64,000 nucleotides of DNA from Actinophytocola oryzae (GTDB lineage Bacteria > Actinomycetota > Actinomycetes > Mycobacteriales > Pseudonocardiaceae). Of this stretch, positions 3,426-35,369 are shown one piece after another; positions within the stretch are counted from its first letter, which is position 1, and every line of letters starts with the position of its first letter. The DNA is taken from assembly GCF_004364325.1 (NCBI RefSeq), contig NZ_SOCP01000001.1, positions 682,001 through 746,000 of the forward strand, written 5' to 3'. The notes below the pieces were generated by a model. The model ran no database searches. It saw only the letters and a list, made by a program, of their open reading frames with translations, and had not been told where the DNA came from. The position numbers and the translations under genes were made by a program.

Positions 3426-3471
3426 TAGTAAGTGGCGTCACACGCGTGTCAATAGTTGGTCCTGATTAAGA

Positions 3472-3488
3472 TGCACTCGGAGTGCAAA
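3472..3488. promoter_or_regulatory. Operator-like motif, copy 2 (TTTGCAC-N3-GAGTGCA)
   Basis: Minus strand TTTGCAC TCC GAGTGCA. The core TGCACTC-G-GAGTGCA is a perfect palindrome with 7-base arms. It lies exactly 63 bp (about six helical turns) from copy 1 in the same orientation and 28 bp upstream of the acyl-CoA synthetase start. The cognate regulator is not obvious in the window. Confidence 0.6.
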
Positions 3489-3515
3489 TTGTTGCTCTGT
3501 CGTCAGGGAGGACGC

Positions 3516-4946
3516 ATGGGCCGGGAACTCTCCATCGGTCGCCTCTTCGGCCACTTCGCCAGTACCCGACCGGACGCCGTGGCCCTCGTCGAGGACGGTT
3601 CGGACGACGTGATGACGTGGACCGAGCTCGACCGCGCCACCAACAGGCTGGCCCGCGTCTACGCGGCGGCGGGTGTCGGCAAGGACTCCGTCGTCGCCGT
3701 CGTGTTGCCCAACTCGGCGGCACTGGTCCGTGCGTGTGTCGCGACGTGGAAGCTCGGCGCGACCACACTGCCGCTGTCGGTGAAGCTGCCCCCGGCCGAG
3801 CGGGAGCGGATCCTCGCGCTCGCGCCGCCCGCGCTGGTCGTCGAGTCCGAAGTGGACGCGAGCGGTCTTTCCGAGGCCGAGTTGCCGGACGTCTCGCCGA
3901 AGTACTGGAAGGCGCTGACCTCCGGGGGCAGCACCGGCAAGCCGAAGCTCATCTTCAGTCACGACCGTCCGCAGTGGGATCCCAACGTGTCGGTGGTCGA
4001 GTACATGCACCCCGACGGCGTCCATCTGGTGGTCGGCCCGCTCTACCACAACGCCGCGTTCATCTACTCGATGCGCGGTCTGTTCAGCGGCAACCGGCTC
4101 GTGGTCATGCGCCGCTTCGACGCGGCCCGCGTGCTGCGCCTCGTCGAGGAGCACGCCGTGACGTGGATGCAGCTCGTGCCGACCATGATGAACCGCATCT
4201 GGAAGCTGCCCCCGGAGGTCCGGGCCGCCGCGGACCTGTCGTCGCTGCGGACGCTGCTGCACGTCGGCGGTCCGTGCGCGCCGTGGCTGAAGGAGGCGTG
4301 GATCGACTGGCTCGGCCCGGACCGCGTGATGGAGGTGTACGCGGGCACCGAGAGCCAGGGCATCACGCTGATCAACGGCCGGGAGTGGTTGTCCCACCGG
4401 GGTTCCGTCGGGAGGGCCATCCGTGGGTCGCGGTTCGAGGTGCAGGACGAACAGGGCCGGGTCGTGCCGCCGGGTGTGGTCGGCGAGGTGTTCCTGATGC
4501 CCGCGGACGGTCCCGGCTCGACCTACCACTACGTCGGCGCGGCACCACGCAGCCGCGACGGCTGGGAGTCGCTCGGCGACCTCGGCCACTACGACGAGGA
4601 CGGTTTCCTGTACCTCGACGACCGCTCGACGGACTGCGTCGTGAGCGGCGGCGCGAACGTGTACCCGGCGGAGGTCGAGGGCGCGCTCGACTCCTGTCCC
4701 GGCGTGCGGGCGAGCGCGGTGATCGGCCTGCCGGACGAGGACCTCGGGCAGCGGGTGGTCGCGATCGTCGAGGCGGACCCGGACGTGACCGCCGAGGCGC
4801 TCGACGCGCACCTGACTTCCTTGTTGGCGCCGTACAAGCGGCCGAGGGCCTACGAGCTGACGCAGTCGCCGCTGCGTGACGAGGCGGGCAAGGTGCGCCG
4901 GTCCGCGTTGCGCGCACAGCGCCTGCCGACGGGGACGGCGTCATGA
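3516..4946 (+). CDS. AMP-dependent acyl-CoA synthetase/ligase
   Basis: 476-residue adenylate-forming enzyme that activates a carboxylic acid with ATP and CoA. P-loop-like motif TSGGSTGKPK (about residue 130), A5 motif YAGTESQG, A8 hinge with YLDDRSTDCVVSGGANVYP followed by AEVE, and the catalytic A10 lysine in DEAGKVRR near the C-terminus are all present. It is somewhat short for the class (usually 500-550), missing length in the N-terminal domain. ATG 3516 is chosen for its GGGAGGA ribosome site; an upstream in-frame GTG at 3456 would run through the operator. The 3' end overlaps the thioesterase start (ATGA). Substrate unknown. Confidence 0.9.
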   Translation: MGRELSIGRLFGHFASTRPDAVALVEDGSDDVMTWTELDRATNRLARVYAAAGVGKDSVVAVVLPNSAALVRACVATWKLGATTLPLSVKLPPAERERILALAPPALVVESEVDASGLSEAELPDVSPKYWKALTSGGSTGKPKLIFSHDRPQWDPNVSVVEYMHPDGVHLVVGPLYHNAAFIYSMRGLFSGNRLVVMRRFDAARVLRLVEEHAVTWMQLVPTMMNRIWKLPPEVRAAADLSSLRTLLHVGGPCAPWLKEAWIDWLGPDRVMEVYAGTESQGITLINGREWLSHRGSVGRAIRGSRFEVQDEQGRVVPPGVVGEVFLMPADGPGSTYHYVGAAPRSRDGWESLGDLGHYDEDGFLYLDDRSTDCVVSGGANVYPAEVEGALDSCPGVRASAVIGLPDEDLGQRVVAIVEADPDVTAEALDAHLTSLLAPYKRPRAYELTQSPLRDEAGKVRRSALRAQRLPTGTAS

Positions 4947-5800
4947 CCGTGGACAGCTGGCGTGCGCACCGGTCCGGTGTGTCCTCCGTGGACGAGCTGG
5001 TGTCGGTGCTCGCGGTGGAACGGCTCTCGGCGACGACGTTCACCGGCCGCAGCACGAGTGTGCCGTCCCACCGGGTGTTCGGCGGCCAGATCCTCGCCCA
5101 GTGCGCGGTGGCCGCGGCGCGGACGGTCGCCCCACCCGCGGTCCTGCACTCGGTGCACGCGTACTTCGTGCGTGCGGCGCGGCCGTCGGTGAAGTTCCAC
5201 TTCGAGGTGACGACCCTGCGCGACGGCCGCTCGTTCGCCGTGCGCCGGATCGACGTGTCGCAGGACGACGAGATCGTGACGTCGATGACCGCGTCGTACC
5301 AGGTGCCGGAGGAGGGCATGGCGCACCAGGACGTGATGCCCGCCCGGCCGGCGGCCGAGGAGCTTGCCGGGAGGACGCCCTTCTACGTGGCGGCGGACGG
5401 GCCGGCCCGGGCGGGTGCGGTCGAGCTGCGTTCGTGCCCGCCCGGGTCGCCGGGTGAGCCCGCTTCCTCGATCTGGATGCGGATCACGGCGCCGCTGCCG
5501 GACGATCCGCTGCTGCACCAGGCGATGCTGATCTACCTGTCGGACTTCGGGATCATGCACGGCGCGTTCCAGCACCACGACGTGGACCGGACGCAGGTCC
5601 GCTCCGCGAGCCTCGACCACAGCATGTGGCTGCACCGCGCGGGCCGCGCGGACGACTGGCTCCTCTACGAGAGCAGGAGCCCGTCGGCCGCGGCAGCGAG
5701 AGCAATGGGACAGGCGAACCTCTTCACGGCAAACGGAACATTGCTGGCAACGGCGAGCCAGGAAATGCTCGTCCGCCGCATCACGGCCCCACTGCACTGA
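4943..5800 (+). CDS. Acyl-CoA thioesterase II (TesB family, double hotdog)
   Basis: 285 residues, the normal length for the TesB double-hotdog fold, which hydrolyses acyl-CoA to free acid and CoA. Conserved stretches include HRVFGGQILAQ, VHAYFVRA, the second-hotdog LDHSMWLHR (Asp of the Asp-Thr-Gln triad) and the C-terminal QEMLVRRI that carries the Gln. It is translationally coupled to the synthetase, so the two genes make and break CoA thioesters of presumably the same acid; this may buffer CoA or set a specific acid pool. The stop codon at 5800 lies inside a copy of the GAAGGCGTCCTTC repeat. Confidence 0.93.
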   Translation: MTVDSWRAHRSGVSSVDELVSVLAVERLSATTFTGRSTSVPSHRVFGGQILAQCAVAAARTVAPPAVLHSVHAYFVRAARPSVKFHFEVTTLRDGRSFAVRRIDVSQDDEIVTSMTASYQVPEEGMAHQDVMPARPAAEELAGRTPFYVAADGPARAGAVELRSCPPGSPGEPASSIWMRITAPLPDDPLLHQAMLIYLSDFGIMHGAFQHHDVDRTQVRSASLDHSMWLHRAGRADDWLLYESRSPSAAAARAMGQANLFTANGTLLATASQEMLVRRITAPLH

Positions 5801-7635: not shown

Positions 7636-7670
7636 CCCCCTGGCCGCATGACAGGATAGCGGCCAGGGGG
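7636..7670 (+). promoter_or_regulatory. 12-bp perfect hairpin covering the lpxA ribosome-binding site
   Basis: CCCCCTGGCCGC (7636-7647) pairs perfectly with GCGGCCAGGGGG (7659-7670) around an 11-base loop. The right arm ends in AGGGGG, seven bases before the GTG of lpxA, so the stem hides the only visible Shine-Dalgarno sequence. It may terminate bL37 transcription, attenuate lpxA translation, or both. No U-tract follows, which weakens the plain-terminator reading. Confidence 0.6.
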
Positions 7671-7677
7671 TATTGCT

Positions 7678-8391
7678 GTGTCTCGCATTCATCCGACCGC
7701 TGTCGTGGCATGCGACGCGGTCGTCGCCGATGACGTCGTGATCGGGCCGTACGCGGTGGTTCACCCGTACGTGCGACTGGCGGCAGGCGTCCGGGTCGAC
7801 GCACACGCCGTGCTGGGCGGAGATCCGCAGGACCTGTCGTTCGCGGGCGGCGTGACGTGGCTCGAGGTCGGCAGGGACACCGTGATCAGGGAGGCGGCGA
7901 TCGTGCACCGGGCGACCAGCCCGGACGTGCCGACCAGGATCGGCGCGTCGTGCCTGATCATGGGGCAGGTGCACGTCAGCCACGACTGCCACCTCGGCGA
8001 CCGCGTCGTGGTGTCGCAGCGCACCGCGCTCGCCGGGCACGTCACGGTCGAGACCGACGCGGTGCTCGGCGGGATGACCGCGGTGCACCAGCACGTCAGG
8101 ATCGGCAGGCGGGCCATGGTCGGCGCGCTGGCCAAGGTGACCCGGGACGTCCTGCCGTTCTGCGCGGTCGACGGCAACCCGGCGACGCACCGCGCGCTGA
8201 ACGTCGTGGGGCTGCGGCGGGCCGGGGCGTCGGCCGAGGACCTCAGGGTGCTGCGCCAGGCGTACAACCGGGTGCGCGCGGGACTGTCCCCCGACGACCG
8301 CGCCGGCCTGGCCGGTCAGCTCGCCGAGTTCCTGGACGTGCCGTCGCCGCGGGGGATCGCCGCGTTCGGCCGGGTTCGCGGGGTGGCCTGA
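7678..8391 (+). CDS. lpxA: UDP-N-acetylglucosamine acyltransferase LpxA homologue
   Basis: 237-residue left-handed beta-helix acyltransferase, close to E. coli LpxA in length (262). LpxA would move a 3-hydroxyacyl (or acyl) group from ACP to the 3-OH of UDP-GlcNAc in the cytoplasm. Beyond generic hexapeptide repeats it has LpxA-specific blocks: HPTAVV at the start, DPQDLSFAGG (NQDLKYAG in E. coli), VHVSHDCHLGD with His102 at the catalytic His125 position, LAGHV, GGMTAVHQ and GNPATHRALNVVGLRRAG. The start is GTG 7678, fixed by alignment of RIHPTAVV. It overlaps lpxD by one base (TGATG). Lipid A genes are unexpected in an actinomycete, so the final product is unknown. Confidence 0.9.
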   Translation: MSRIHPTAVVACDAVVADDVVIGPYAVVHPYVRLAAGVRVDAHAVLGGDPQDLSFAGGVTWLEVGRDTVIREAAIVHRATSPDVPTRIGASCLIMGQVHVSHDCHLGDRVVVSQRTALAGHVTVETDAVLGGMTAVHQHVRIGRRAMVGALAKVTRDVLPFCAVDGNPATHRALNVVGLRRAGASAEDLRVLRQAYNRVRAGLSPDDRAGLAGQLAEFLDVPSPRGIAAFGRVRGVA

Positions 8392-9389
8392 TGTGGACCC
8401 TCGCCGAGTTGGCACCACTGCTCGGGGCCTCCGTCGGCAGGTCACCCGACTTCGCCGTGGCACGGCCGGTCCCGTACGACTCCGACGACCCACACGGCCT
8501 GGCCTACTGTGCGAGCGCCCGGTACGCACGGGAGGCGGCACGGCACGCGGTGGGCGCGTTGGTCCTGCCACCCGACCTCGAACCCGATCGCCCCTGCCTG
8601 TACGCCGAGAACCCCGGGGCCGCGTTCGCGCGTTTCCTCGCGCTGTACCGGCGTCCGCTGCCACTGGCGTCCGGGGTGCACCCGACGGCGGTGGTCGACC
8701 CGGCGGCCGAGGTGGCGCCGGGGGCGTCGGTGGGGCCGTACGCGGTTGTCGAGCGTGGCGCCCGGATCGGGGCCGGGGCACGGGTTTTCCCGTTCTGCTA
8801 CGTGGGTGAGGACTGCGTGGTCGGGGAGGAGACCGTGCTGTACCCCCATGTCGTGCTGTACCAGGACGTGCGGGTCGGGGCGCGGTGTGTGGTGCACGCA
8901 CACGCGGTGCTCGGCGCGGACGGCTTCGGCTTCGCGTGGGACGGCACCCGTCAGGTCAGGATCGAGCAGGTCGGCGGGGTCCGGATCGGCGACGACGTCG
9001 AGATCGGCGCGGGTTCCGCCGTCGACCGCGCGACCAGCGGCACGACGGGGATCGGTGCCGGGACCAAGCTGGACAACCTGGTGCAGATAGGACACAACGC
9101 CGACGTGGGTCCGGACACGCTGATCTGCGGCCAGGCCGGGGTGGCGGGCAGTGCCGTCGTCGGGCGGCGGGTGACCATGGCGGGCCAGAGCGGTGTGGCC
9201 GACCACGTCACGGTCGGCGACGGGGTGACACTGGCCGGACGGGCGGTTGCGAGCCGGGACATCGACGAACCCGTTGTGCACCACGGGTTCCCGGCCCGCC
9301 CGGACGGGTTGCGGATAGCGGCCGCGCTGGCCGAGCTACCCGGCCTGCGCGACCGCGTCAGGCAGCTGGAACGCCTGCTGGCGGAATGA
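8391..9389 (+). CDS. lpxD: UDP-3-O-acylglucosamine N-acyltransferase LpxD homologue
   Basis: 332 residues (E. coli LpxD 341). Residues 1-95 form the LpxD-type N-terminal uridine-binding domain. From about 97 a left-handed beta-helix contains the hallmark VLGADGFGFA, VEIGAGSAVDRAT and LDNLVQIGHN, where His235 sits at the position of catalytic His239. The reaction expected is N-acylation of UDP-3-O-acyl-glucosamine, the step after LpxC. Translationally coupled on both sides: start overlaps the lpxA stop, end overlaps the lpxC start. The C-terminal helix is short (RQLERLLAE). Confidence in family is high; acyl donor and chain length cannot be read from sequence. Confidence 0.9.
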   Translation: MWTLAELAPLLGASVGRSPDFAVARPVPYDSDDPHGLAYCASARYAREAARHAVGALVLPPDLEPDRPCLYAENPGAAFARFLALYRRPLPLASGVHPTAVVDPAAEVAPGASVGPYAVVERGARIGAGARVFPFCYVGEDCVVGEETVLYPHVVLYQDVRVGARCVVHAHAVLGADGFGFAWDGTRQVRIEQVGGVRIGDDVEIGAGSAVDRATSGTTGIGAGTKLDNLVQIGHNADVGPDTLICGQAGVAGSAVVGRRVTMAGQSGVADHVTVGDGVTLAGRAVASRDIDEPVVHHGFPARPDGLRIAAALAELPGLRDRVRQLERLLAE

Positions 9390-10162
9390 TCCACCGCCGT
9401 GCGACCGTGCGGGCACCGGTGACCATGACCGGCCGCGGCCTCCACTCCGGGCGCCCGGTGACGGTGACGATCCACCCCGGCGACGACGGCATCGCCTTCC
9501 GCTGCGGCGGTGCTCGCGTGGCCGCCACCCCGGCCGAGGTCACGGACACCCGCCTGCGCACGGCGCTGGGCCACGTCGCCACGGTCGAGCACCTGATGAG
9601 CGCGTTCGCGGGCGCCGGCGTGACCGACGCCGAGGTCGAGCTGACCTACCCGGAACTGCCCGCCCTCGACGGCAGCGCCGCCGCCTTCCTGGCCGTGCTG
9701 CACCCGAGTCCCCTCACCGACACCGAGATCGCGCTGCCACGCGACGAGGTCGTGGTCGAGACACCGGAGGCGTCGATCAGGGTCCGGCGGGGGAGCGGGG
9801 TGTGGAGCTACACCTTCGAGCACGGCCCCGCCGTCGCGACGTTCACCTGCCGACTGCCCCGCGACTACCGCGACGGGGTGGCACCCGCACGGACGTTCGC
9901 CGCCGCGGAGCAGGTGCCGGCCATGGCCGCGGCGGGGCTGGGTCAGGGGCTCGACACGTCGTCCGTGCTGCTCCTGACCCCGGACGGCTACGCGAACCCG
10001 CCACGCTTCCCGGACGAGCCGGCCAGGCACAAGCTGCTCGACCTGGTCGGCGACCTCTACCTGACCGGTATCCCGCCGGGTCTGCTCGACGTGACGGCCT
10101 CGTTCGGCGGTCACACCGCCAACGTCCGGATGGCCGCACTCCTGGGTGACAGCGTGAAGTAG
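9386..10162 (+). CDS. lpxC: UDP-3-O-acyl-N-acetylglucosamine deacetylase LpxC homologue
   Basis: 258 residues, shorter than E. coli LpxC (305) but with the full active site. Zinc ligands His69 (VEHLMSA), His215 and Asp219 (ARHKLLDLVGDLYL), the general base Glu68 next to His69, and His243 (FGGHTANVRM) are all present, as is Lys216. This is the committed zinc-dependent deacetylation of lipid A synthesis. The ATG overlaps the lpxD stop (ATGA). No lpxH, lpxB, lpxK or Kdo genes are visible here, so the operon would stop at UDP-2,3-diacylglucosamine unless later enzymes are elsewhere. Conservation of every catalytic residue argues for activity. Confidence 0.92.
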   Translation: MIHRRATVRAPVTMTGRGLHSGRPVTVTIHPGDDGIAFRCGGARVAATPAEVTDTRLRTALGHVATVEHLMSAFAGAGVTDAEVELTYPELPALDGSAAAFLAVLHPSPLTDTEIALPRDEVVVETPEASIRVRRGSGVWSYTFEHGPAVATFTCRLPRDYRDGVAPARTFAAAEQVPAMAAAGLGQGLDTSSVLLLTPDGYANPPRFPDEPARHKLLDLVGDLYLTGIPPGLLDVTASFGGHTANVRMAALLGDSVK

Positions 10163-12051: not shown

Positions 12052-13242
12052 CTACATGAAGTTCCTGGTGTGCAGCGCGGACAGCGCCGCCGCCTCGTCG
12101 GCGTGGAAGCCGAGCCGCACGAGCCTGCGCTGCCTGCCCTGATCCATGACGTGCTGCAGCTCCTGCACCCGCCGGTGTCCCGCGGCGATGTCGTCCGGCG
12201 CCCAGCTCCCGGCCGCCAGGACCACCAGCGCGTCGAACACGTCGGCGTTGAGCCCCGCGGTGTCCATGAGCGCGTCGTGGCGGTGGTGGATCGCCGCGCG
12301 GAGCCGGTCCTTCAGCCCTGGGTCCACAGTGGACTGGTGGGCGAGGTGGGCCATGCCGAACACCACGTGCCGCCGCTCGTCGCGGCCTGCGAGCCGGCAG
12401 ATCCGGCGGGTCACCGGGTCCGGCGCGGTGTGTTCGAGGAACGCCAGCAGGTCCACGAACGTCCCCTCGCCGAGCACCGACAGCAGGAACGACGCCAGTG
12501 CGAAGTCCGACTCGGTGACGAGCGTGAACAACGACGAGCGCCCGCCTGCCGACGACGTGCCCATCTCGGTGCCACGCAACAACGCCCGCCGCGCGAACAC
12601 CGACATGTGCCGTGCCTCGTCGGCCATCTGCACGGCCAGGAGCTGCACCACCTCGCGGAAGTGCGGGTGGATCCGCCCGACGAACCTCGCGGGCACGATC
12701 AACGCGGCCTGCTCGTTCTCCACCAGGTAGGTCATGACCTGCACGACCGCGGCCTCGACGTCCGGCGGCAGGGTGAACTCCGCCGACCACGGCACCGCCT
12801 GCTCCGGGTCCCACTGGCGCGCCGCGGCCTGCGCGTAGAGCTTCGGCGCGATGTCGGCCCAGACCAGGTCCTTGTCGTCCAGGTCGAACATCGGTTCCGG
12901 GCCGCCCTTCTCCAGCAGCGCACCCCGCACGCCGAGACCCCAGCTCGCGGGTGGCCTGCCACGCAGGTCCTCCGGCTCGGCGAGCCCGGCCCGTTCCGCA
13001 CCCCGCCAGCGCGCGTCGTCGGCGTCACCACGCACGACCACGGCCACGCCGTCGTCCGTCGACTCGACCCGGTGCCCGCGCCCGCGTGCCCACGCGGGCA
13101 GGTGCACCCGCAGGGCCGGGTCGCGGCCGTGCACCGTGACCCGCCCGCCCGGCGGCAACCCGTCGAGTGCCCGCTGGACGAGCAGGTGGGCGCCCTCGGT
13201 GAACCCCAGGCCGGCCAGGTCGACCGAGGCCTCGGGTGTCAC
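12052..13242 (-). CDS. TusA-like domain fused to ferritin-like diiron protein
   Basis: 396 residues. Residues 7-72 read like a TusA/SirA sulfur-carrier fold (VDLAGLGFTEGAHLLVQRAL, then LPPGGRVTVHGRDPA), but the catalytic CPxP is replaced by FTEG, so no Cys is available for persulfide transfer. Residues about 165-300 form a four-helix diiron bundle with candidate ligands Glu175/177, Glu209-x2-His212 (DEARH), Glu259 and Glu289-x2-His292 (DERRH). The start is GTG 13242, overlapping the upstream stop (GTGA). It is the last gene of a coupled trio with an acyl-CoA dehydrogenase-like enzyme and a PhnD-like protein. The diiron centre suggests an oxygen-dependent oxidation; substrate unknown. Confidence 0.7.
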   Translation of the reverse strand: MTPEASVDLAGLGFTEGAHLLVQRALDGLPPGGRVTVHGRDPALRVHLPAWARGRGHRVESTDDGVAVVVRGDADDARWRGAERAGLAEPEDLRGRPPASWGLGVRGALLEKGGPEPMFDLDDKDLVWADIAPKLYAQAAARQWDPEQAVPWSAEFTLPPDVEAAVVQVMTYLVENEQAALIVPARFVGRIHPHFREVVQLLAVQMADEARHMSVFARRALLRGTEMGTSSAGGRSSLFTLVTESDFALASFLLSVLGEGTFVDLLAFLEHTAPDPVTRRICRLAGRDERRHVVFGMAHLAHQSTVDPGLKDRLRAAIHHRHDALMDTAGLNADVFDALVVLAAGSWAPDDIAAGHRRVQELQHVMDQGRQRRLVRLGFHADEAAALSALHTRNFM

Positions 13243-16345: not shown

Positions 16346-17401
16346 TCAGCGCAGGTCGCGCGGGTCGATTTCCCTGGTCACGGTCTTGGCGGAGCTGCTG
16401 GAGAAGCACACGACCGAGTGCTTGCCCTCGCCGCCCGCCACCACGACGTTGAGGGCCTCCGGCGTGTCCAGGCCGCGGACCATGCCGTCCCGGAAGACCT
16501 CGGGGAACCGGCCGCGCCTGCGCCGCACGACCTCCAGCAGGCGGGGCGTGAAAGCGGTCTCCGGGGCCCAGGACCGCTCGTACAGCTCCCGCTGCACGTC
16601 AGCACGCGACAGGCCCTCCTTCGCGATCAGGCCGGCGTGCTCGGGGCCGAGCAGCACCGTGACGTGGCCGCCGTTCTGGAAGGTGTTCGTGCCGGACACG
16701 GTCAGCGAGCCGGCCAGGTTGGTGAGCACCTCGTCACCGGAGGTCGACACGCTGTCATAGTGGTTGAGCAGGGAGGCCACCCCGGTGACGGTCAGTGCCG
16801 ACGCCGCGTCGACGCCCCGGCTCGCGGCGAGGGTCTCCCATGGACTGTCGGCCTCGTTCTCGGCGAGCACCATGCCGAACTTCGCCTGCTGGCCGTGGGT
16901 GGCCCGGTCGACGGCGCCGGGCAGCGCGCCGCCGATGTTGATCAGCGCGAGCCGTAGTGCGCGGCCGGTGGTGATGTTGCCCCGGTGCCCTGGACCGAGG
17001 TAGCCGCGTCCGCTGGTGAGCCCGGCGCGGGCGGCGGCGGGGCCGCTCACGATCACGGCCGGGGTCACCGGGTTCGTGGTGACCTGCACGGCCGTCAGGT
17101 TGAACACGGGCTCGACCAGCGCCTGCACGGCCGCGATCACGACGGCCAGCGACTCCGGCCGGGCTCCGGCCATGATCGCGTTGATGGCCAGCGCACGCAC
17201 GGTCGCCTGGCCCCAGCTCGGCGTGATCGCGCCGATCACCTCGTCGGGGTCGCGGTCGGTCGAGCGGAGGAACTCCGCCAGGCGCGCCCTGGTCGGCGGG
17301 ATGACCGGCAGGCCGTCGCCGATCTCCTCACGCTCGGTGAACCGCAGCCACTCCTCCGGGTCGTCGGGCAGCTCCCACATCTTCTCGCGGAAGGCCATCA
17401 C
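16346..17401 (-). CDS. UGSC-associated conserved protein of unknown function
   Basis: 351 residues (GTG 17401, overlapping the selenoprotein stop as GTGA; ATG 17398 is the alternative). The opening GDGLPVIPPTRARLAEFL, the middle GYLGPGHRGNITTGRALRL and ATHGQQAKFGMVLAENEADS, then LLGPEHAGLIAKEGLS and GGEGKHSVVCFSSS are the blocks of a protein that I recall as commonly paired with UGSC-family genes. No known catalytic motif is recognised. No signal peptide or membrane segment, so probably cytoplasmic. The strict pairing suggests both work on one substrate or form one complex. Confidence 0.75.
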   Translation of the reverse strand: MMAFREKMWELPDDPEEWLRFTEREEIGDGLPVIPPTRARLAEFLRSTDRDPDEVIGAITPSWGQATVRALAINAIMAGARPESLAVVIAAVQALVEPVFNLTAVQVTTNPVTPAVIVSGPAAARAGLTSGRGYLGPGHRGNITTGRALRLALINIGGALPGAVDRATHGQQAKFGMVLAENEADSPWETLAASRGVDAASALTVTGVASLLNHYDSVSTSGDEVLTNLAGSLTVSGTNTFQNGGHVTVLLGPEHAGLIAKEGLSRADVQRELYERSWAPETAFTPRLLEVVRRRRGRFPEVFRDGMVRGLDTPEALNVVVAGGEGKHSVVCFSSSSAKTVTREIDPRDLR

Positions 17402-18017: not shown

Positions 18018-19238
18018 TCAGTCTCCGATGTGGACGTTCACGGAGTAGATCCGTTCCATGGGGCCGCTTCGGTACGCCTCGATCGCGTGCGCGACCCAGC
18101 CCGCCGCCCGCGAGAGGACGAAGATCGTCTCGCCGGAACCCGGTGCCATGCCGAGGACGTAGGTCATCGCGGCGAGCGCGAAGCCGGCGTTGGGGGCGGG
18201 AAGTCCGCGCCACTCCTGGGTCTTGATGACGTTCTCGACGGTGGCGAGCCGGTCGGACTGCGGCGAGCACCGGCGCAGGCGGGCCAGCAGGTAGGCCGCG
18301 CGGACATCGCCGGTCGGGTAGACCTGGTGGCCGAAGCCGGGAATCGCCGCACCCTGGCGCAGCCGCATGCCGAGTGACTCCTCCACGGTCGCGGCCGACT
18401 TCATGTTGTGCAGCAACGACTCGATGGCGAGTGACGCGGAGCCCTTGACGGGGCCGCTGCCGACGTCGATGCCCAGCCTCAGCAGCCCGCTCGGCTCGAC
18501 ACCGGCCCGGGCTGCCGTGCGGACCACGTGGGTGGCGGCGGCGAGGTCGTGGTCGGCGAGCATGACCATGGCCGCGTTCAACAGCTTCAGCTCGGCCTCG
18601 TTGGGCGCCCGGTCGCACAGTCGTGACCACAGCAGTGCGGCCATCGGCGACGCGGGTGCGTCGAACGTGGTCGTGTCGACCGGCTCGGACTTCGCGGGGA
18701 GCGCGGTGAGCATCGTCGCGAGCGTGCGCTGGGCGGTGGTGGCGACGACGTCGGGGCTCACGTCCCAGGTGGGCGGTTCGACGGCGGCGATGCACGCGGC
18801 GATCACCTTCACCTGGTCGACCGGCAGCGCGCTCGCGGGCAGCGTCTTGATGACCTTGCGGCAGAAGCGTTCGGTGGCGGGCGAGGACAGCCACGGCGTC
18901 CCGGCGGTGTCGAAACCCCACAGCAGCCTGGCGACCTCCTCGAAGGTCGCGCTCTCCGCGAGATCGGTCGCCTTGCGGCTGCGGTAGAACAGGGCCTCGG
19001 GCGTGATCAGCGTGATCTCGGACTCGACGCCGTCGGGCGGGACATTCTCCTTGCCGCGGCGAACCTTCGCGGACAGCCGGTCGATGTCGGCCAGGCGGAA
19101 CAGGCTGCCCCGGCCACCCGCGGCCTTGCGGCTGGTGAGGCGCCCCCGGCTCACGTACGCGTAGACCGTCTCCTTCTTCACGTTGAGCCGGTCGGCCGCC
19201 TCGTCCGCGGTCAGCCAGACACCCGTGTCCTCAGTCAT
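18018..19238 (-). CDS. HTH-citrate synthase fusion with degenerate active site, probable ligand-sensing regulator
   Basis: 406 residues. Residues 8-58 are an excisionase/MerR-type HTH (LTADEAADRLNVKKETVYAY, then RLTSRK and FRLADIDRL). From about 75 to the end is a citrate-synthase fold: MVMLADHDLAAATH, GSGPVKGSASLAIESLL, GFGHQVYPTGDVRA, PNAGFALAAM, RAAGWVAHAIEAY. Of the catalytic triad only His304 (GFGH) remains; the HGGA histidine is Lys265 (VKGSA) and the Asp of PNVDF is Gly352. Catalysis is unlikely, while a CoA or carboxylate pocket could remain for sensing. ATG 19238, AAGGG upstream; 35 bp after the MFS gene with operator-like site B in the gap. Confidence 0.85.
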   Translation of the reverse strand: MTEDTGVWLTADEAADRLNVKKETVYAYVSRGRLTSRKAAGGRGSLFRLADIDRLSAKVRRGKENVPPDGVESEITLITPEALFYRSRKATDLAESATFEEVARLLWGFDTAGTPWLSSPATERFCRKVIKTLPASALPVDQVKVIAACIAAVEPPTWDVSPDVVATTAQRTLATMLTALPAKSEPVDTTTFDAPASPMAALLWSRLCDRAPNEAELKLLNAAMVMLADHDLAAATHVVRTAARAGVEPSGLLRLGIDVGSGPVKGSASLAIESLLHNMKSAATVEESLGMRLRQGAAIPGFGHQVYPTGDVRAAYLLARLRRCSPQSDRLATVENVIKTQEWRGLPAPNAGFALAAMTYVLGMAPGSGETIFVLSRAAGWVAHAIEAYRSGPMERIYSVNVHIGD

Positions 19239-19256
19239 GTCGCGGCCCTTGTCTGC

Positions 19257-19282
19257 ATACGTTGATTGATGGATCAACCTAC
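19257..19282. promoter_or_regulatory. Operator-like site B (ATCAAYGTWK family), ahead of the HTH-citrate synthase gene
   Basis: Plus strand ATACGTTGAT-TGATGG-ATCAACCTAC: GTTGAT and ATCAAC arms with a six-base spacer. The left half is the exact complement of ATCAACGTAT in site A. It overlaps the 3' end of the MFS gene and lies 19 bp from the start of the fusion protein, fitting autoregulation. Confidence 0.55.
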
Positions 19283-20464
19283 CACGTTGTCACCCTTTCG
19301 CGTCCTTCTCTCGCGCCACGCCGAGGGCACCAACAACGACGTGCCCCCGACGGCCAGGATCGCGCCCAGCACGAAGCTCGCCCCCACCCCGGCGACCGAG
19401 GCGGCGGCGCCGAACGCGATGGGCGTGAGGAAGTCCGCGAGCCGGTTGCCGGTCAGCCGCAGGCCGACGGCCATGCCGAGCTGGTGCGGCGGTGCCGAGC
19501 CCGCGATGACCGCCATCGACAACGGCCTGCCGGTGCCGAACGCGAGCCCGAGCGTCGCGGTGAGCAACGCCAGTACCACCACCGACGAGGACAGCGGCAT
19601 GGCGAGCAGCGCGCACACCACGACCAGGCCGACGACCGTCATCAGCGTGTGCCTGCCCCATTTGCGCACGAGTGTCGGCATCACGAGCCTGGCGGCGAGA
19701 CCCGCGCCGGAGAACAGGCTGAGCACCCAGCTCAGCTGCTGCACCGACAGGCCGGCCTCGTCCTGGAGGTAGATGGGCAGGAACGAGATCCGCAGCATCT
19801 CCGGCACCGACATCAGGCAGCTGATGAGGATCGCGATGCGCATGGACCGTGTCCGCAGCAGGGTCAGCGCCTGGCTGCGACCGCTGACGCGTTCCGGTGC
19901 GGCCACCGGCTTCCCGGCGATCGAGGGCACGGTCAGCGTCACCCCGCAGGACAGCACACCGAGCGCCGCCGCGCACAGGAACAGGGTGTGGTAGCCGGAC
20001 ACCGCGATGAGGATGCCTGCCACGATCGGGCCGAGGATCTGTCCTGCCGACGCGACCAGGGTGTACACGCTGAAGTGCTTCTCGGCCGTGCCCTTCTCGG
20101 CGAGTCCGGCCACCCTGGCCTGACCGCCGAGCATGATCATGAGCTGGCCGGTGCCCGCGAGGACCTGGGCAGCCAGGACGACCGTCAGGTTCGGCCACAG
20201 CCACAGTGCGACATAGGCGAGAACGGACAGCAGGGAGCCGAAGAAGAACACCGCGCGGATCCCGTGCCGGTCGGAGATCAGCCCGATCGGCACGGCCAGC
20301 ACCATCGGGGTCAGCGCGGTCGCGGCGGTGATCACCCCGATGTCGGCGAGGCTCGCGCCGAGGCTCCCGGCGTACAGCGGCACGAACGCCTTCACCATGT
20401 GGTTCTGCAGGTAGTGGATGAACGAGAACGCCATCACCGGGCTGAGGCGAGCGAGTGTGCTCAT
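19274..20464 (-). CDS. MFS transporter
   Basis: 396 residues with about 12 hydrophobic segments and the MFS loop motif A-like sequence GLISDRHGIRAVFF between TM2 and TM3, repeated in weaker form after TM8 (PTLVRKWGRHTLM). Helical stretches such as LIMVLGG, LGPIVAGILIAVSG and VVVLALLTATLGLAFG fit a drug/metabolite-type exporter or carboxylate carrier. ATG 20464 overlaps the MmgE/PrpD stop. A second transporter in a locus that already has TctABC may export a product or import a related acid. Confidence 0.88.
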   Translation of the reverse strand: MSTLARLSPVMAFSFIHYLQNHMVKAFVPLYAGSLGASLADIGVITAATALTPMVLAVPIGLISDRHGIRAVFFFGSLLSVLAYVALWLWPNLTVVLAAQVLAGTGQLMIMLGGQARVAGLAEKGTAEKHFSVYTLVASAGQILGPIVAGILIAVSGYHTLFLCAAALGVLSCGVTLTVPSIAGKPVAAPERVSGRSQALTLLRTRSMRIAILISCLMSVPEMLRISFLPIYLQDEAGLSVQQLSWVLSLFSGAGLAARLVMPTLVRKWGRHTLMTVVGLVVVCALLAMPLSSSVVVLALLTATLGLAFGTGRPLSMAVIAGSAPPHQLGMAVGLRLTGNRLADFLTPIAFGAAASVAGVGASFVLGAILAVGGTSLLVPSAWRERRTRKGDNVVG

Positions 20465-21801
20465 CCCAGCAGAGCCGTCAGCTCGGTGAGGTCCTCGACC
20501 TCCTCCAGCCGCTCGACGACGTCGACCAGCCGCGTCACGCGGTCCTCGGCGCCGACCGAGGCCAGACAGTCGGCCACCTTGAGGATCCGGGCGTCCCGGT
20601 CCATCGGCCGCGCGACGGAGCCCGGGAAGCTGTGGCAGGTCTCCCGCAGCTCCCGCCCGTCGTGGGTGTGGACGGTGACCCTGGCCCAGGTGTCGAGCTT
20701 GTCCTTCGGGATGTCCGGGTTCTCCCGCAGCACGACCTTCGGCAGCGTCTGCTCGACGGCGGGCGAGAACCGGACAGCGTCGGCGAACGTGCCGATACCG
20801 ACCCGGTCCTGGACCAGCGCCGCGGTCACGCAGTACTCGTAGCTGAACTTGCCGTCCAGGCCGGTGGCGGGCGCGGGCCTGGACAGGTCCGCGCGGTACA
20901 GCGGCGGCTCCACCACGACCGCCGCGATGTCCTCGGCGGACAGCCGGTGGCGGGCACGCAGCGTCGCGGCGGCGTCGATCGGCCACTGCATGTAGATCTC
21001 CGCCGGGTAGGGCTTGATCGAGAAACCGGGATCGACGAGGTGGAACCGCTTGCCGATCCCGTCGGTGACCGCGTCCCAGTCGGCCTCGCCTGCGAACAGC
21101 GCGTCGGCGAACCCCCGGTGCGCGTCGAGGATCTCGGTGTTGCTGGTGACCCCGAGCGCGGCGAGGTCCGCGCACTCGACGCCCGCGCGTGCGGCGCCCC
21201 CGGGGTGCAGGGCCTTGGCCATCGTCCCGTTGTTGGCGAACAGGCCACCCGCGCGGGACGCGGCGAGCCCGAACGCGGTGGCCGCGGCCACCGCGTCGAG
21301 GCCCAGCACCGACGCCGCGGCGGCCACCGCCCCGAGTGGTCCGACCACGCCGGGCGGGTGGAACGACCGCGACGCGGTGCGCTCACCCGCCGTCCGCAGC
21401 CGCTGCTGGACGTCCCAGCCGACCGCGTACGCGGTCACCAGCGCCGCCCCGGACGCGCCGGTGCGCTCGGCGAGCGCCAGCGCGGCGGGCAGGATCGAGG
21501 AGGTGCCGTGCGCGGACGGGTAACCCTGGACCTCGTAGTCGAGGCAGTGCCCGGCCACCCCGTTGACGAACGCGGCCAGGGCGGACGGCAGCTGTCGCCC
21601 ACCGACCACTGTGGACTCCGTAGTGCCGCCCTGCGCGGTCGCCCAGCAGGCAACCCGTTGCGCCACCGGCTGGCCCGCGCCCGCGACGATGTTCGCGAGC
21701 CCGTCGAGGATCGCCACCTTCGCCGCGGCGACCACCTCCGCCGGCAGCTCGCCAGGGCTCGTCTCCGCGACGAACCCCGCGAGCCGCCCGGTCGGTGTCA
21801 T
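20461..21801 (-). CDS. MmgE/PrpD family protein 1 (2-methylcitrate dehydratase fold)
   Basis: 446 residues, full length for the family, whose members dehydrate 2-methylcitrate, decarboxylate cis-aconitate or epimerise iminodisuccinate. The helical domain starts at LAGFVAETSPGELP; the lid domain is near SIKPYPAEIYMQWP. Active-site positions known from ACOD1 are mostly kept: HCLDYEVQGYPSAHG (usual DFDD is DYEV here), SFHPPG and GTMAKALHPGG with the Lys. The DFDD to DYEV change may shift substrate preference. Coupled to the flavoprotein upstream and MFS downstream by ATGA overlaps. Confidence 0.9.
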   Translation of the reverse strand: MTPTGRLAGFVAETSPGELPAEVVAAAKVAILDGLANIVAGAGQPVAQRVACWATAQGGTTESTVVGGRQLPSALAAFVNGVAGHCLDYEVQGYPSAHGTSSILPAALALAERTGASGAALVTAYAVGWDVQQRLRTAGERTASRSFHPPGVVGPLGAVAAAASVLGLDAVAAATAFGLAASRAGGLFANNGTMAKALHPGGAARAGVECADLAALGVTSNTEILDAHRGFADALFAGEADWDAVTDGIGKRFHLVDPGFSIKPYPAEIYMQWPIDAAATLRARHRLSAEDIAAVVVEPPLYRADLSRPAPATGLDGKFSYEYCVTAALVQDRVGIGTFADAVRFSPAVEQTLPKVVLRENPDIPKDKLDTWARVTVHTHDGRELRETCHSFPGSVARPMDRDARILKVADCLASVGAEDRVTRLVDVVERLEEVEDLTELTALLG

Positions 21802-23285
21802 GCCGGCGCCGCCGCCGAGCGGGCCGCGTGCTCGCCGGCGATCCGCCCGAACACCGCGCCTGCCATCATGCCCGAGCCGGAGGGGTAGTTGCCGTGCCAG
21901 AGGCCGCCGAGCATCTCGCCCGCGGTGTAGAGGCCGGGGATCGGCCGGCCCGCGGTGTGCTGCACCTGCGCGGTCTTCGCGTCGACCCGCAGGCCGCCGA
22001 AGGTGAACGTGATCGCGCAGCACACGCCGTAGGCCTCGAACGGGCCCTCCTCGATGCTGATCGAGTAGTTGCTCTTGTCGATCGCGAGCCCCGAGGTGTG
22101 CTTGCCGTCCAGGGTGAACGGGCTCGGGTCCAGCTTGCCCGGCTGGATCGCCGCGTTGTACTGCGTGACCGTGGCGCGCAGCTTCTCCGCGGGCACGCCG
22201 ATCTTCGTCGCCAGTTCGTCCAGTGTGGCCGCCGTGACACCGGTGGCGTTGTTGCGGTCGTAGTCCTCGAGCAGGCCGAGTCCGCGTGCCTTCGAGTCGA
22301 AGAGCTGGTAGGCGACGCCGCCGGTCTGCGCGCGCACCGACCAACCCATCTTCGCGTAGGTGCGACCACGCACGTCGCTGCCCTCGTCGACGAACCGCTC
22401 GCCCTCGAGGTTCACCATGATGCTGTACGGGTAGGCGTAGCGGCTGGTCCGCATGCCGCCGTTCGGCACCGACGACGGCAGCGTGTACGCGGGGCGGTCG
22501 ATGTCCTGCGGCGACGCGTGGCAGGACGTGAAGCTGCCGTAGGGCATCGCGCCGATGGCGAGTGCCGCGTTGATGCCGTCACCGGTGTTGTAGGGCACGC
22601 CGCGGTTCTTGACCGTGTCCCAGCCCGCGCCGAGGTACTTGGCCCGCATCTCCGGGTTCGCCTCGAAACCGCCGCACGCCAGGATCACCGCCTTGGCGCG
22701 GAAGGTCGTGAAGCCCTCCGGGGTGAACGCCCGCACCCCATCGACCTCGCCGCGCCTGTTCACGATGATGTCGGTCATCGAGGCCTCGTAGTGGATCTGG
22801 CCGCCCGACTTCTCCACGTTGCCGAAGTGCCGTTCCTGCAGCCGGTACCCGCGGCCTGCCATCTGGGTGGTGTTGCCCGCGGTGGCGGCGATGTTCGGCA
22901 CCCACGCGTGCCCCTTGCCGCGCAACCACTTGATGGTCGGGTAGGCGTTCTCCACGTGCGTGGTGAGCAGGTCCTTGTCGGCCTTGCCCGCGGTGGTGCG
23001 GATGACCTCGTCCCACAGGTCCTCCTTGCCACGCCGGGGAAGGCGGTCGTGGATCACGGCGAGGTCGTCGGGGTTCGGGTCGTCGATGAGCACGGCGAGC
23101 TCGTCGACGTTCTCGTACGGGAACCGCATGTGGCCGGTGAGCGCGCTGTTGCCGCCGCGCTCGTCGCGCGGCGCCTTCTCCAGGACCGCCACGGACGCGC
23201 CGAGGTCCAGCGCGGCCTGCGCGGCGCAGAGCCCCGCGTTGCCGCCGCCGACCACGACCACGTCGTAGTAGTACTCGTCTTCCAT
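21798..23285 (-). CDS. FAD-dependent dehydrogenase of the fumarate reductase/TcuA type
   Basis: 495 residues. N-terminal dinucleotide motif VVVVGGGNAGLCAAQAALD, then LEKAPRDERGGNS, a GGN-GLCAA / RGGNS pattern characteristic of tricarballylate dehydrogenase TcuA and relatives. The C-terminal FAD block is GLYTAGEMLGGLWHGNYPSG. The capping domain includes MAGRGYRLQERH and SCHASPQD. TcuA oxidises tricarballylate to cis-aconitate; here a related 2,3-dehydrogenation (or reduction of an enoate) of a tricarboxylate is a fair inference given TctABC in the same array. No TcuB-like electron partner is visible. ATG 23285 chosen for GAGAGGGA. Confidence 0.85.
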   Translation of the reverse strand: MEDEYYYDVVVVGGGNAGLCAAQAALDLGASVAVLEKAPRDERGGNSALTGHMRFPYENVDELAVLIDDPNPDDLAVIHDRLPRRGKEDLWDEVIRTTAGKADKDLLTTHVENAYPTIKWLRGKGHAWVPNIAATAGNTTQMAGRGYRLQERHFGNVEKSGGQIHYEASMTDIIVNRRGEVDGVRAFTPEGFTTFRAKAVILACGGFEANPEMRAKYLGAGWDTVKNRGVPYNTGDGINAALAIGAMPYGSFTSCHASPQDIDRPAYTLPSSVPNGGMRTSRYAYPYSIMVNLEGERFVDEGSDVRGRTYAKMGWSVRAQTGGVAYQLFDSKARGLGLLEDYDRNNATGVTAATLDELATKIGVPAEKLRATVTQYNAAIQPGKLDPSPFTLDGKHTSGLAIDKSNYSISIEEGPFEAYGVCCAITFTFGGLRVDAKTAQVQHTAGRPIPGLYTAGEMLGGLWHGNYPSGSGMMAGAVFGRIAGEHAARSAAAPA

Positions 23286-23318
23286 CGTCGATCCCTCTCT
23301 CAACTGGGTCGTGGCGGG

Positions 23319-24527
23319 TCAGGTCAGGACGTCCGACTCGGCCAGCTCGGTGATCTCGTTGTCCGACAGGCCCAGCAGTTCGGTGAGCACCTCGCGGGTG
23401 TGCTCGCCGAGCAGGGGAGCGGGCCGGTGCAGCCCGCCGGGGGTCACGGAAAGCCGGAACGGCGGTGCGCCGTACAGGGTGGTGCCCATCTCGCGATGGC
23501 GCAGGTACTGCCAGTGCTCGCGGTGTGCCAGCTGCGGGTCGTGGCGCACGAGGGCCTCGGTGTCCCGCACGACACCCGCCGGGATGCCGCGTCCCTGCAG
23601 CACGGCCATCGCGTCCTCGGCGCGCCAGGTGGCGAGGCGTTTCTGTACGGCGGCGTCGACCTCGGCCGCCGCCGCCCGCCGACCCGCCTCGTCCGTCCAC
23701 TGTGGCGGGGCGCCCAGCGCCAGCTCCTCGGCCAGCGCGCGCCACTCCGCGTCCGTGCGTACGGCGACGGCGAGCCACTCGTCCTCGCCCGCGCACCGGT
23801 AGATGCCGTGCGGACACCACGTGGGGTCGGTGTTGCCGCGTGCCGGCGGGTCGACGCCGTTGACGGTCCACTCCATGATGGACGGTGCGATCGCCGCGAT
23901 CGTCGGTTCGGTCTGGGCGATGTCGATGAGCTGGCCCTCGCCGGTGCGCCGCACGTGGCGCAGTGCCGCGAGCACGGCGAACGCCGCATGGCACGGGTTG
24001 GGCACGTGGTCGGGGTAGTTGGTGCCGGTGCCGACGGGGTAGCGGTCGGGCAGGCCCGTGAGGTGGGTGAGGCCGATCAGCGCGGTGATCGTGAGGCCGT
24101 AGCCGAGGTTGTCCTTCTCGGGGCCGGTGGCGCCCTGCATGGACATCGACAGGTAGACCACCCTGGGGTTGACCGCGCGCACCTGCTCGTAGCCGAGGCC
24201 GAAGCGGTCCATCACCCCCGGCCGGAAGTTGTTGGCCACGACGTCCGCGGTGGCCGTGAGCCGCCGCGCCAACTCTTGGCCTCGGTAGTCCTTGAGGTTG
24301 AGGGTGATGCCGCGCTTGCTGGTGTTGCGCTCGGCGAAGTAGCCGCTGCGGTCGACACCGCGGACCCCGCCCGCGAACGGCGCGCCGACGCGGAGGCTGT
24401 CGAGGTGTTTCGCGCTCTCCACCTTGATGACGTCCGCGCCGTGGTCGGCGAGGAGCTTCGTGGTGAACGAGCCCGCGCCGACCCACGTGAAGTCGAGCAC
24501 CCGCACTCCCGCCAGCGGCCCGGTCAC
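23319..24527 (-). CDS. CaiB/BaiF family CoA-transferase 1
   Basis: 402 residues, normal length for class III CoA-transferases, which move CoA between carboxylic acids through an enzyme-bound Asp anhydride. Motifs: GVRVLDFTWVGAGSF, ADVIKVES, SKRGITLNLKDYRG, MSMQGATGPEKD and YPDHVPNPCHAAFAVLAAL, where the Asp is the expected catalytic residue. GTG 24527 overlaps the second CoA-transferase (GTGA), so the two are probably made in equal amounts and may form a heteromer. Provides the CoA thioester needed by the hydratase and thiolase-fold enzymes. Confidence 0.92.
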   Translation of the reverse strand: MTGPLAGVRVLDFTWVGAGSFTTKLLADHGADVIKVESAKHLDSLRVGAPFAGGVRGVDRSGYFAERNTSKRGITLNLKDYRGQELARRLTATADVVANNFRPGVMDRFGLGYEQVRAVNPRVVYLSMSMQGATGPEKDNLGYGLTITALIGLTHLTGLPDRYPVGTGTNYPDHVPNPCHAAFAVLAALRHVRRTGEGQLIDIAQTEPTIAAIAPSIMEWTVNGVDPPARGNTDPTWCPHGIYRCAGEDEWLAVAVRTDAEWRALAEELALGAPPQWTDEAGRRAAAAEVDAAVQKRLATWRAEDAMAVLQGRGIPAGVVRDTEALVRHDPQLAHREHWQYLRHREMGTTLYGAPPFRLSVTPGGLHRPAPLLGEHTREVLTELLGLSDNEITELAESDVLT

Positions 24528-25690: not shown

Positions 25691-26103
25691 GACGGATCCT
25701 CGTGGCGGAACTGGTGGATGGTCACGCCCGGCGCTACCTCGGTGAAGGTCACCTGGACCGCGTCGCCGACCCGGACCTCGCCAGGCGGCACACCGACCAC
25801 ATTGGACAGCAGGTGCGGTCCCTCGGCCAGCTCGACGATCGAGACGTTGTACGGGACCTCGGTCGCGAAGGCCTTGTTGTAGACCTGGTGGAAGACGACC
25901 GTCGAGAACACGGTCCCGCGCCCCGACAACGCCTCCCACTCGTAGTCCGACGACAGGCACTGCGGGCAGACGGTCGCGATCGGGTTGCGCAGGTGCCCGC
26001 ACGCGGTGCACCGCTGGAGCCGGAGCGCGCCGTCGGCGAGGCCGTCCCAGAACGGGCGGCTGAGGTCGGTCGGGGTGGGCAGTGGCCTGGTCATCCCGGT
26101 CAC
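25687..26103 (-). CDS. Zn-ribbon OB-fold protein (DUF35) partner of the thiolase-like protein
   Basis: 138 residues from GTG 26103 (GTGA overlap with the thiolase-like gene); ATG 26094 is an alternative. A rubredoxin-like zinc ribbon (CTACGHLRNPIATVCPQC) precedes an OB fold (GTVFSTVVFHQVYN, VGDAVQVTFTEVAPG). DUF35 proteins act as obligate partners of thiolase-fold enzymes, for example in the Ltp2-type retro-aldolase of steroid side-chain degradation and in archaeal HMG-CoA synthesis, where they bind the acyl-CoA. The adjacent gene supplies the matching thiolase-fold subunit. Confidence 0.9.
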   Translation of the reverse strand: MTGMTRPLPTPTDLSRPFWDGLADGALRLQRCTACGHLRNPIATVCPQCLSSDYEWEALSGRGTVFSTVVFHQVYNKAFATEVPYNVSIVELAEGPHLLSNVVGVPPGEVRVGDAVQVTFTEVAPGVTIHQFRHEDPS

Positions 26104-27239: not shown

Positions 27240-27249
27240 GTTTCTCCCT

Positions 27250-28029: not shown

Positions 28030-28044
28030 CGCTCACCACCCCTT

Positions 28045-34148: not shown

Positions 34149-34175
34149 GGCGGTCCTTGTCCGTCAGTGAGCGGT

Positions 34176-34208: not shown

Positions 34209-34213
34209 AGGGC

Positions 34214-35350: not shown

Positions 35351-35369
35351 GGTAACTCCTATCTTCTTG

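What the first reader, a model, noticed from the sequence alone, without database searches (positions are those of the whole stretch)
7678..10162. Complete lpxA-lpxD-lpxC operon (early lipid A pathway) in an actinomycete
Three translationally coupled genes encode homologues of the first three enzymes of lipid A synthesis with family-specific motifs, not just generic hexapeptide repeats. LpxC keeps Glu68, His69, His215, Asp219 and His243; LpxA keeps the catalytic His (His102) and GGMTAVHQ; LpxD keeps QIGHN (His235). The setting is a monoderm-type high-GC actinomycete with no LPS genes in view. If active, the operon makes UDP-2,3-diacylglucosamine, a precursor with no known use in this group. 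Possible ends are an undescribed diacyl-glucosamine lipid of the envelope, a glycolipid antibiotic, or protein/lipid acylation.
Basis: partly seen in the sequence, partly recalled or inferred. Interest (0 to 1): 0.95.

Follow-up and report, generated by a model that had tools for sequence, protein, structure and literature searches.

The report
Lipid A starter operon in actinomycete
A high-GC actinomycete, from a group thought to lack lipopolysaccharide genes, carries open reading frames for homologues of the first three lipid A enzymes in one compact overlapping array, likely acquired from other phyla and predicted to make a doubly fatty-acylated sugar for an unknown glycolipid rather than lipopolysaccharide.

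Summary
lpxA (7678-8391), lpxD (8391-9389) and lpxC (9386-10162) overlap; their best solved relatives are LpxA, LpxD and LpxC, and the catalytic residues checked are kept. The contig is 946 kb of an assembly inferred to be Pseudonocardiaceae. The cassette is intact in five further actinomycete genomes and broken in a sixth; only one pair of the seven loci shares its flanks. It is rare: LpxC matches 6 of 297 family genomes and 0 of 5 congeners. LpxH, LpxI, LpxK and LptD profiles match 0 of 7 carriers, LpxB none above cut-off, so lipid A or LPS is unlikely to be the product. LpxC and LpxD resemble Armatimonadota (Fimbriimonadia) sequences; LpxA lies in a Meiothermus-type clade, and grouping it with Armatimonadota LpxA is rejected (AU p 0.001). 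In the LpxA clade 42 of 59 rows lack one 18-residue coil and only 3 of 59 keep Lys76. I read this as a horizontally assembled, truncated Raetz pathway that likely makes UDP-2,3-di(3-hydroxyacyl)glucosamine, which an unlinked glycosyltransferase would transfer to a non-LPS glycolipid. Activity and end product are untested. My searches of an open-licence library found no description.

The parts
7678..8391 (+). lpxA: acyl-ACP--UDP-N-acetylglucosamine O-acyltransferase homologue, 237 aa (alternative start 7705); catalytic His102 codon at 7981-7983
8391..9389 (+). lpxD: UDP-3-O-acylglucosamine N-acyltransferase homologue, 332 aa; catalytic His235 codon at 9093-9095; overlaps lpxA stop by 1 nt (TGATG)
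9386..10162 (+). lpxC: UDP-3-O-acyl-GlcNAc deacetylase homologue, 258 aa; Zn ligands His69 (9590-9592), His215 (10028-10030), Asp219 (10040-10042); overlaps lpxD by 4 nt (ATGA)
7665..7670 (+). AGGGGG, plausible ribosome-binding site of lpxA (inferred from sequence)
7750..7820 (+). N-terminal beta-helix region of LpxA in which one 18-residue coil present in E. coli and Meiothermus LpxA is missing (exact place ambiguous because of the repeats)

Best explanation
The window holds open, overlapping lpxA, lpxD and lpxC genes, likely assembled and spread by horizontal transfer, that are predicted to run the first three steps of the Raetz pathway in an actinomycete and so would make UDP-2,3-di(3-hydroxyacyl)glucosamine as donor for a glycolipid that is likely not lipid A. 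Steps: (1) LpxA would move an R-3-hydroxyacyl chain from ACP to O3 of UDP-GlcNAc (inferred; base His102-Asp103, oxyanion Gly120 and the 3-hydroxyl contacts Gln51, His77, His99 are kept). (2) LpxC would remove the N-acetyl group with Zn held by His69/His215/Asp219, base Glu68 and acid His243 (inferred from kept residues and predicted fold). (3) LpxD would add a second 3-hydroxyacyl chain to N2 (inferred; His235, Asp228, Gln232 kept). (4) The known next enzymes were not found by profile in seven carrier genomes, so an unlinked, unidentified glycosyltransferase would transfer the diacyl-glucosamine to an acceptor, giving an envelope or secreted glycolipid (inference, weakest step).
For: Family, fold and residues; residue roles from PMC6286764 passages. 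Co-inheritance: gene order A-D-C in all seven actinomycete loci, and every named actinomycete falls into one clade in the LpxC, LpxD and 45-row LpxA trees. Purifying selection: NG86 omega 0.25, 0.19, 0.19 between the two closest carriers. Not lipid A: LpxK, LpxI, LpxH and LptD each 0 of 7 (six genomes with the intact cassette, one with a broken one); LpxB 0 of 7 over cut-off. Horizontal history: 6 of 297 family genomes, 0 of 5 congeners; only one pair of the seven loci shares flanks; LpxC clade of 47 rows, SH-aLRT 98, nested among Armatimonadota-type rows; LpxA inside a Meiothermus-type group, AU p 0.0013 against joining Armatimonadota LpxA.
Against: No biochemistry. No glycosyltransferase or phosphatase was seen next to the cassette among the flanking proteins profiled, except a GT4 in A. 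arida. LpxC misses the TIGR00325 and LpxA the TIGR01852 cut-off. Lys76, which contacts the GlcNAc ring oxygen in the E. coli product complex (PMC6286764, passages), is Ser, and one coil is missing, so the acceptor sugar could differ. A Kutzneria genome keeps lpxA but has broken lpxD and lpxC, so the pathway is dispensable there. Omega for pairs with the window is higher, 0.24-0.54. The absence tests have limited reach: of 14 control genomes LpxC rang in 4, LpxK and LpxH in 3, LptD in 2, LpxI in 1. The own assembly has 5.06% contamination. Meiothermus LpxC and LpxD could not be examined, so a single donor is not excluded; the larger LpxA tree left the actinomycete rows unresolved at the base.
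Confidence: 0.6

Rival explanations
1. The cassette feeds a specialised metabolite: the acylated glucosamine is a building block of a secreted glycolipid or nucleoside antibiotic rather than of the envelope.
For: Scattered distribution among genera that include antibiotic producers (recalled) fits secondary metabolism; loss in one lineage shows it is dispensable there.
Against: Among 30 flanking proteins profiled at six loci (10 window, 5 L084, 5 L093, 4 L004, 3 L005, 3 L094; L092 not profiled) I saw no hallmark of a biosynthetic cluster; no cluster predictor was available.
Confidence: 0.2
2. The subfamily acts on another UDP-hexosamine (such as UDP-GalNAc) to supply N-acyl-hexosamine for polar glycolipids, like the GalNAcyl-containing glycolipids of Meiothermus.
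For: Actinomycete LpxA nests in a Meiothermus-type group. Lys76 is nearly lost in both: Lys in 3 of 59 actinomycete-clade and 0 of 60 Meiothermus-type rows against 6 of 6 outgroup rows. M. ruber glycolipids carry 2-hydroxy, 3-hydroxy or unsubstituted fatty acids amide-linked to galactosamine (PMC3035268, passages).
Against: I know of no LpxA shown to act on UDP-GalNAc (recalled); LpxC and LpxD resemble Armatimonadota, and their presence in Meiothermus was not testable; no such lipid was seen for these actinomycetes in what I read.
Confidence: 0.12
3. The genes are an acquired, idle remnant with no product in the cell.
For: Sporadic distribution and one decayed copy; omega of pairs with the window 0.24-0.54.
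Against: All three frames open with high GC3; catalytic residues kept across 59 LpxA and 43 LpxC rows; omega 0.19-0.25 in the closest pair; actinomycete clades in the LpxC, LpxD and 45-row LpxA trees.
Confidence: 0.08

Closest known systems
Raetz pathway, first three enzymes (E. coli LpxA, LpxC, LpxD)
   Same: Families, catalytic residues, folds (LpxA and LpxC modelled) and predicted chemistry
   Different: In an actinomycete; LpxH, LpxI and LpxK not found and LpxB not over cut-off in seven carriers; order A-D-C; LpxA lacks one 18-residue coil and Lys76
Armatimonadota (Fimbriimonadia) lpxD-lpxC pair
   Same: Named Fimbriimonadia rows are 47-52% (LpxC) and 50-55% (LpxD) identical; lpxD and lpxC adjacent in L006-L009
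   Different: Their LpxA is only 36-44% identical to the window LpxA, and in the two Fimbriimonadaceae genomes no LpxA lies inside the fetched locus
Meiothermus-type LpxA
   Same: Named Meiothermus and Allomeiothermus rows are 51-55% identical to the window LpxA; share near-complete loss of Lys76
   Different: Keep the full segment of 38 residues in 60 of 60 rows; 42 of 59 actinomycete-clade rows have 20
Plant lpx genes
   Same: Precedent for lpx genes in an organism without bacterial LPS; plant lipid A thought to differ (PMC3087551, passage); the Arabidopsis LpxA structure 3t57 is among the matches
   Different: Eukaryotic; that plants carry more of the pathway is recalled; no relation to this cassette shown

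Membership tests
LpxA (UDP-GlcNAc O-acyltransferase) | Left-handed beta-helix with C-terminal helical domain, best relatives LpxA | tested here: met
   best model pLDDT 92.9, the other four 67-77; top match 3hsq, TM 0.85
LpxA (UDP-GlcNAc O-acyltransferase) | Catalytic His125-Asp126, oxyanion Gly143, 3-hydroxyl contacts Gln73, His99, His122 | tested here: met
   each kept in 59 of 59 actinomycete-clade rows, window included
LpxA (UDP-GlcNAc O-acyltransferase) | Lys76 contact to the GlcNAc ring oxygen | tested here: not met
   Ser54 in the window; Lys in 3 of 59 actinomycete-clade rows, 6 of 6 outgroup rows
LpxA (UDP-GlcNAc O-acyltransferase) | NCBIfam equivalog cut-offs | tested here: inconclusive
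   NF003657 236.4 of 226 met; TIGR01852 213.6 of 231.05 not met
LpxC (UDP-3-O-acyl-GlcNAc deacetylase) | Zn ligands, base, acid, and equivalents of Thr191, Lys239, Asp246 | tested here: met
   His69, His215, Asp219, Glu68, His243, Thr170, Lys216, Asp223 invariant in 43 of 43 rows, chosen from 120 listed; the last three equivalences are by motif, no E. coli alignment was printed; model pLDDT 96.6, top match Aquifex LpxC
LpxC (UDP-3-O-acyl-GlcNAc deacetylase) | Family profile cut-off | tested here: inconclusive
   Pfam PF03331 178 of 27 met; TIGR00325 114 of 187 not met
LpxD (UDP-3-O-acyl-GlcN N-acyltransferase) | Profile cut-offs and catalytic His239, Asp232, Gln236, Gly257, His276 | tested here: met
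   NF002060 311 of 207, TIGR01853 291 of 242.5; residues 235, 228, 232, 253, 272; PF04613 N-domain 27.5 of 30.8, just under
Complete lipid A (Raetz) pathway | LpxH or LpxI, LpxB, LpxK present | tested here: not met
   LpxH, LpxI, LpxK 0 of 7 carrier genomes; LpxB 0 of 7 over cut-off, one 20-bit hit in G140
LPS outer membrane | LptD | tested here: not met
   0 of 7 carriers; the profile rang in 2 of 14 control genomes
Enzyme activity of all three | Conversion of UDP-GlcNAc to UDP-2,3-diacylglucosamine | not testable with these tools
   needs purified proteins

The most novel reading that the evidence does not exclude
Actinomycetes built a new, self-contained lipid A head module by placing a Meiothermus-type lpxA in front of an Armatimonadota-type lpxD-lpxC pair. 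They use it to make an undescribed class of 2,3-di(3-hydroxyacyl)hexosamine glycolipid, possibly on a sugar nucleotide other than UDP-GlcNAc, in cells with a single membrane.
Probability: 0.35. Interest if true: 0.88.

Novelty: new variant of a known kind. Interest (0 to 1): 0.74.

Why it matters
[quoted passage not shown] A recurrent lpxADC cassette there would show that the committed steps of lipid A synthesis can be uncoupled from LPS and outer membranes. It points to a testable unknown lipid in culturable strains, cautions against using lpx genes alone as markers of diderm cells, and raises the possibility that LpxC inhibitors act on some actinomycetes.

Tried and rejected
Contaminating contig: rejected. 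The contig is 946 kb, GC3 is high throughout, and records named Actinophytocola, Kibdelosporangium and others carry relatives of all three proteins. Complete lipid A pathway: rejected at profile level. Conserved neighbour that would name the pathway: none found (window 1-22000 against six loci, E 1e-8; Pfam of flanks). Weak shared hits: trypsin-like genes near three loci (37-43% identity, different places), a 29% acyl-CoA-ligase-like pair between the window and L093, and a 31% pair between L093 and L094; I treat these as chance. Empty-site comparison with congeners through the M15 peptidase: the gene is not syntenic in the three regions fetched, so no empty site was shown. Plasmid carriage: no actinomycete among the 15 rows listed of 48 LpxA and of 65 LpxC plasmid records; the other rows were not seen. 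Insertion repeats, promoters, tRNA, known RNA families: nothing convincing. I first took Glu200 and Arg205 changes in LpxA as diagnostic; the outgroup rows lack them too, so only Lys76 and the coil stand. Phylum hits G668 and G445 (79% and 85% complete) were set aside: the G668 LpxC falls outside the actinomycete clade; the G445 fragment was not examined. Rows dropped: six LpxD rows under 300 aa; LpxA rows under 200 aa; P0233 from the groups; L098 as the same gene as L009. The LpxC tree used 17 of the fetched loci; the 45-row LpxA tree used 38 of the listed LpxA rows. One search compared typed contig lengths of a hand-picked subset (27 LpxA, 27 LpxC, 19 LpxD rows): 11 contig lengths occur in all three lists.
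Full report
What is there. Three overlapping plus-strand genes at 7678-10162 encode homologues of LpxA (237 aa), LpxD (332 aa) and LpxC (258 aa). The junctions are TGATG and ATGA, so translational coupling is plausible. GC3 is 0.94, 0.88 and 0.93, and all three are picked by a codon-usage gene caller, which however prefers later starts for lpxA (7705) and lpxC (9419). The window lies in a 946 kb contig of a 10.7 Mb assembly (98.6% complete, 5.06% contamination).

Are they really Lpx enzymes? The best solved relatives are LpxA, LpxD and LpxC enzymes. LpxD passes its two NCBIfam cut-offs; LpxA passes one of two; LpxC passes Pfam PF03331 widely but not TIGR00325. AlphaFold models (LpxA pLDDT 92.9 with the other four models at 67-77; LpxC 96.6; LpxD not modelled) match Leptospira and other LpxA, and Aquifex, Pseudomonas and E. 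coli LpxC first. Using residue roles from a review (PMC6286764, passages), LpxC keeps the Zn ligands, base and acid, and by motif the Asp246, Thr191 and Lys239 equivalents, in 43 of 43 aligned rows chosen from the 120 listed. LpxD keeps the His239, Asp232, Gln236, Gly257 and His276 equivalents. LpxA keeps the His125-Asp126 dyad, Gly143 and the three residues that contact the 3-hydroxyl group of the acyl chain in 59 of 59 actinomycete-clade rows (named actinomycetes plus unnamed metagenome rows that group with them). A 3-hydroxyacyl donor is therefore the likely substrate. Ala at the Gly173 ruler position (47 of 59 rows) hints at a chain shorter than C14 in LpxA, while Val at the LpxD Met290 position hints at a deeper pocket there; both are inference.

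Two departures in LpxA. Forty-two of 59 actinomycete-clade rows, the window included, have a 20-residue segment where 60 of 60 Meiothermus-type and 6 of 6 outgroup rows have 38: one beta-helix coil's worth of residues is gone. Amycolatopsis arida, Micromonospora, Streptomyces and Actinomadura rows keep it, so the loss looks derived within actinomycetes. Lys76, which contacts the GlcNAc ring oxygen in the E. coli product complex, is Lys in 3 of 59 actinomycete-clade and 0 of 60 Meiothermus-type rows but in 6 of 6 outgroup rows. Changes at Glu200 and Arg205 are not diagnostic because the outgroup rows share them.

Who else has it. In the family sample 6 of 297 genomes have an LpxC match, one of them fragmented. 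None of five other genomes of the genus has one. In a phylum sample 3 of 396 match: the window genome and two incomplete genomes (79% and 85%) that I set aside. Flanks are shared only between K. phytohabitans and Actinosynnema sp. ALI-1.44, apart from weak hits. The Kutzneria locus keeps lpxA but has broken lpxD and lpxC. Protein searches add records named Actinophytocola, Micromonospora, Streptomyces and Actinomadura, and many unnamed metagenome proteins. The cassette is thus a self-contained unit that was repeatedly transferred or lost. Between the two syntenic carriers omega is 0.25, 0.19 and 0.19 for lpxA, lpxD and lpxC, against 0.08 and 0.15 for two flanking genes; pairs with the window give 0.24-0.54, with large dS (NG86). 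I read the close pair as purifying selection, weaker than on its neighbours.

Where it came from. LpxC: 47 rows including every named actinomycete form one clade (SH-aLRT 98) nested among Armatimonadota-type rows, with Pseudomonadota and other phyla outside (quick tree). LpxD: 30 rows including every named actinomycete form one clade (SH-aLRT 93); the other named rows are Fimbriimonadia, Armatimonadota loci and one Chlorobia-labelled MAG, and no outgroup phylum was put in this tree, so nesting is not shown. LpxA: in the 45-row tree the 22 actinomycete-clade rows form one clade (100/100) inside a Meiothermus-type group (97/93), and forcing them together with Armatimonadota LpxA is rejected (log-likelihood 46 lower, AU p 0.0013); the group was named after the first tree was seen, and the larger quick tree did not resolve the actinomycete rows as one clade. 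In Fimbriimonadaceae lpxD and lpxC are adjacent with no lpxA inside the fetched locus, and their LpxA is 38-39% identical to the window's. The simplest reading is that a Deinococcota-type lpxA was joined to an Armatimonadota-type lpxD-lpxC pair. An unsampled single donor is not excluded, since Meiothermus LpxC and LpxD could not be examined.

What it does. The later enzymes are not found in seven carriers: LpxK, LpxI, LpxH and LptD 0 of 7; LpxB 0 of 7 over cut-off with one 20-bit hit in G140. Among 14 control genomes LpxC rang in 4, LpxB in 6 (4 over cut-off), LpxK in 3, LpxH in 3 (1 over cut-off), LptD in 2 and LpxI in 1, so these tests have limited reach. The pathway therefore likely stops at UDP-2,3-diacylglucosamine. 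No flanking glycosyltransferase is conserved in the flanks profiled. I commit to the reading that this is a donor for a non-LPS glycolipid made by an unlinked glycosyltransferase. The enzymatic part is well supported by inference, the end product weakly. A lead is that Meiothermus ruber polar glycolipids carry 2-hydroxy, 3-hydroxy or unsubstituted fatty acids amide-linked to galactosamine (PMC3035268, passages), and its genus has the closest named LpxA outside actinomycetes, beside a MAG labelled Deinococcus-Thermus.

What is in print. An LPS survey lists Actinobacteria among phyla that appear to lack LPS coding capacity (PMC5007114, passages). An earlier survey found no Kdo2-lipid A genes in seven Gram-positive genomes (PMC3087551, passages). 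Seven searches of an open-licence PMC library listed no paper whose title or abstract start describes an actinomycete lpxADC operon; of the listed papers I read passages of four (PMC5007114, PMC5167688, PMC3087551, PMC12171682) and saw only the listing of the rest. Subscription literature was not searched. Several records already carry LpxA, LpxC or LpxD names, so the genes are annotated but, as far as I could see, undiscussed.

Noticed in passing
   Followed up: partly
window 18018-36746 (-): Four MmgE/PrpD-family proteins lie close together with a citrate synthase-like protein, two CoA-transferases III, a thiolase-like protein, an MFS and a TctA transporter; an unusual 2-methylcitrate-like or dicarboxylate cluster.
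   Followed up: no
window 54823-57747 (+) and 62041-63984 (-): Predicted proteins of 974 and 647 aa without a Pfam match at E 1e-10.
   Followed up: no
window 12055-13242 (-) and 16349-17401 (-): Two well-scoring genes of 396 and 351 aa without a Pfam match at E 1e-5.
   Followed up: no
window 3456-5800 (+): An acyl-CoA ligase and a TesB-type thioesterase lie about 2 kb upstream of lpxA; not conserved next to the cassette at other loci, so not taken as part of the system.
   Followed up: partly
L004:6781-7800 (-): A GT4-type glycosyltransferase gene is divergent to lpxA in Amycolatopsis arida; a possible candidate for the missing transfer step there.
   Followed up: no
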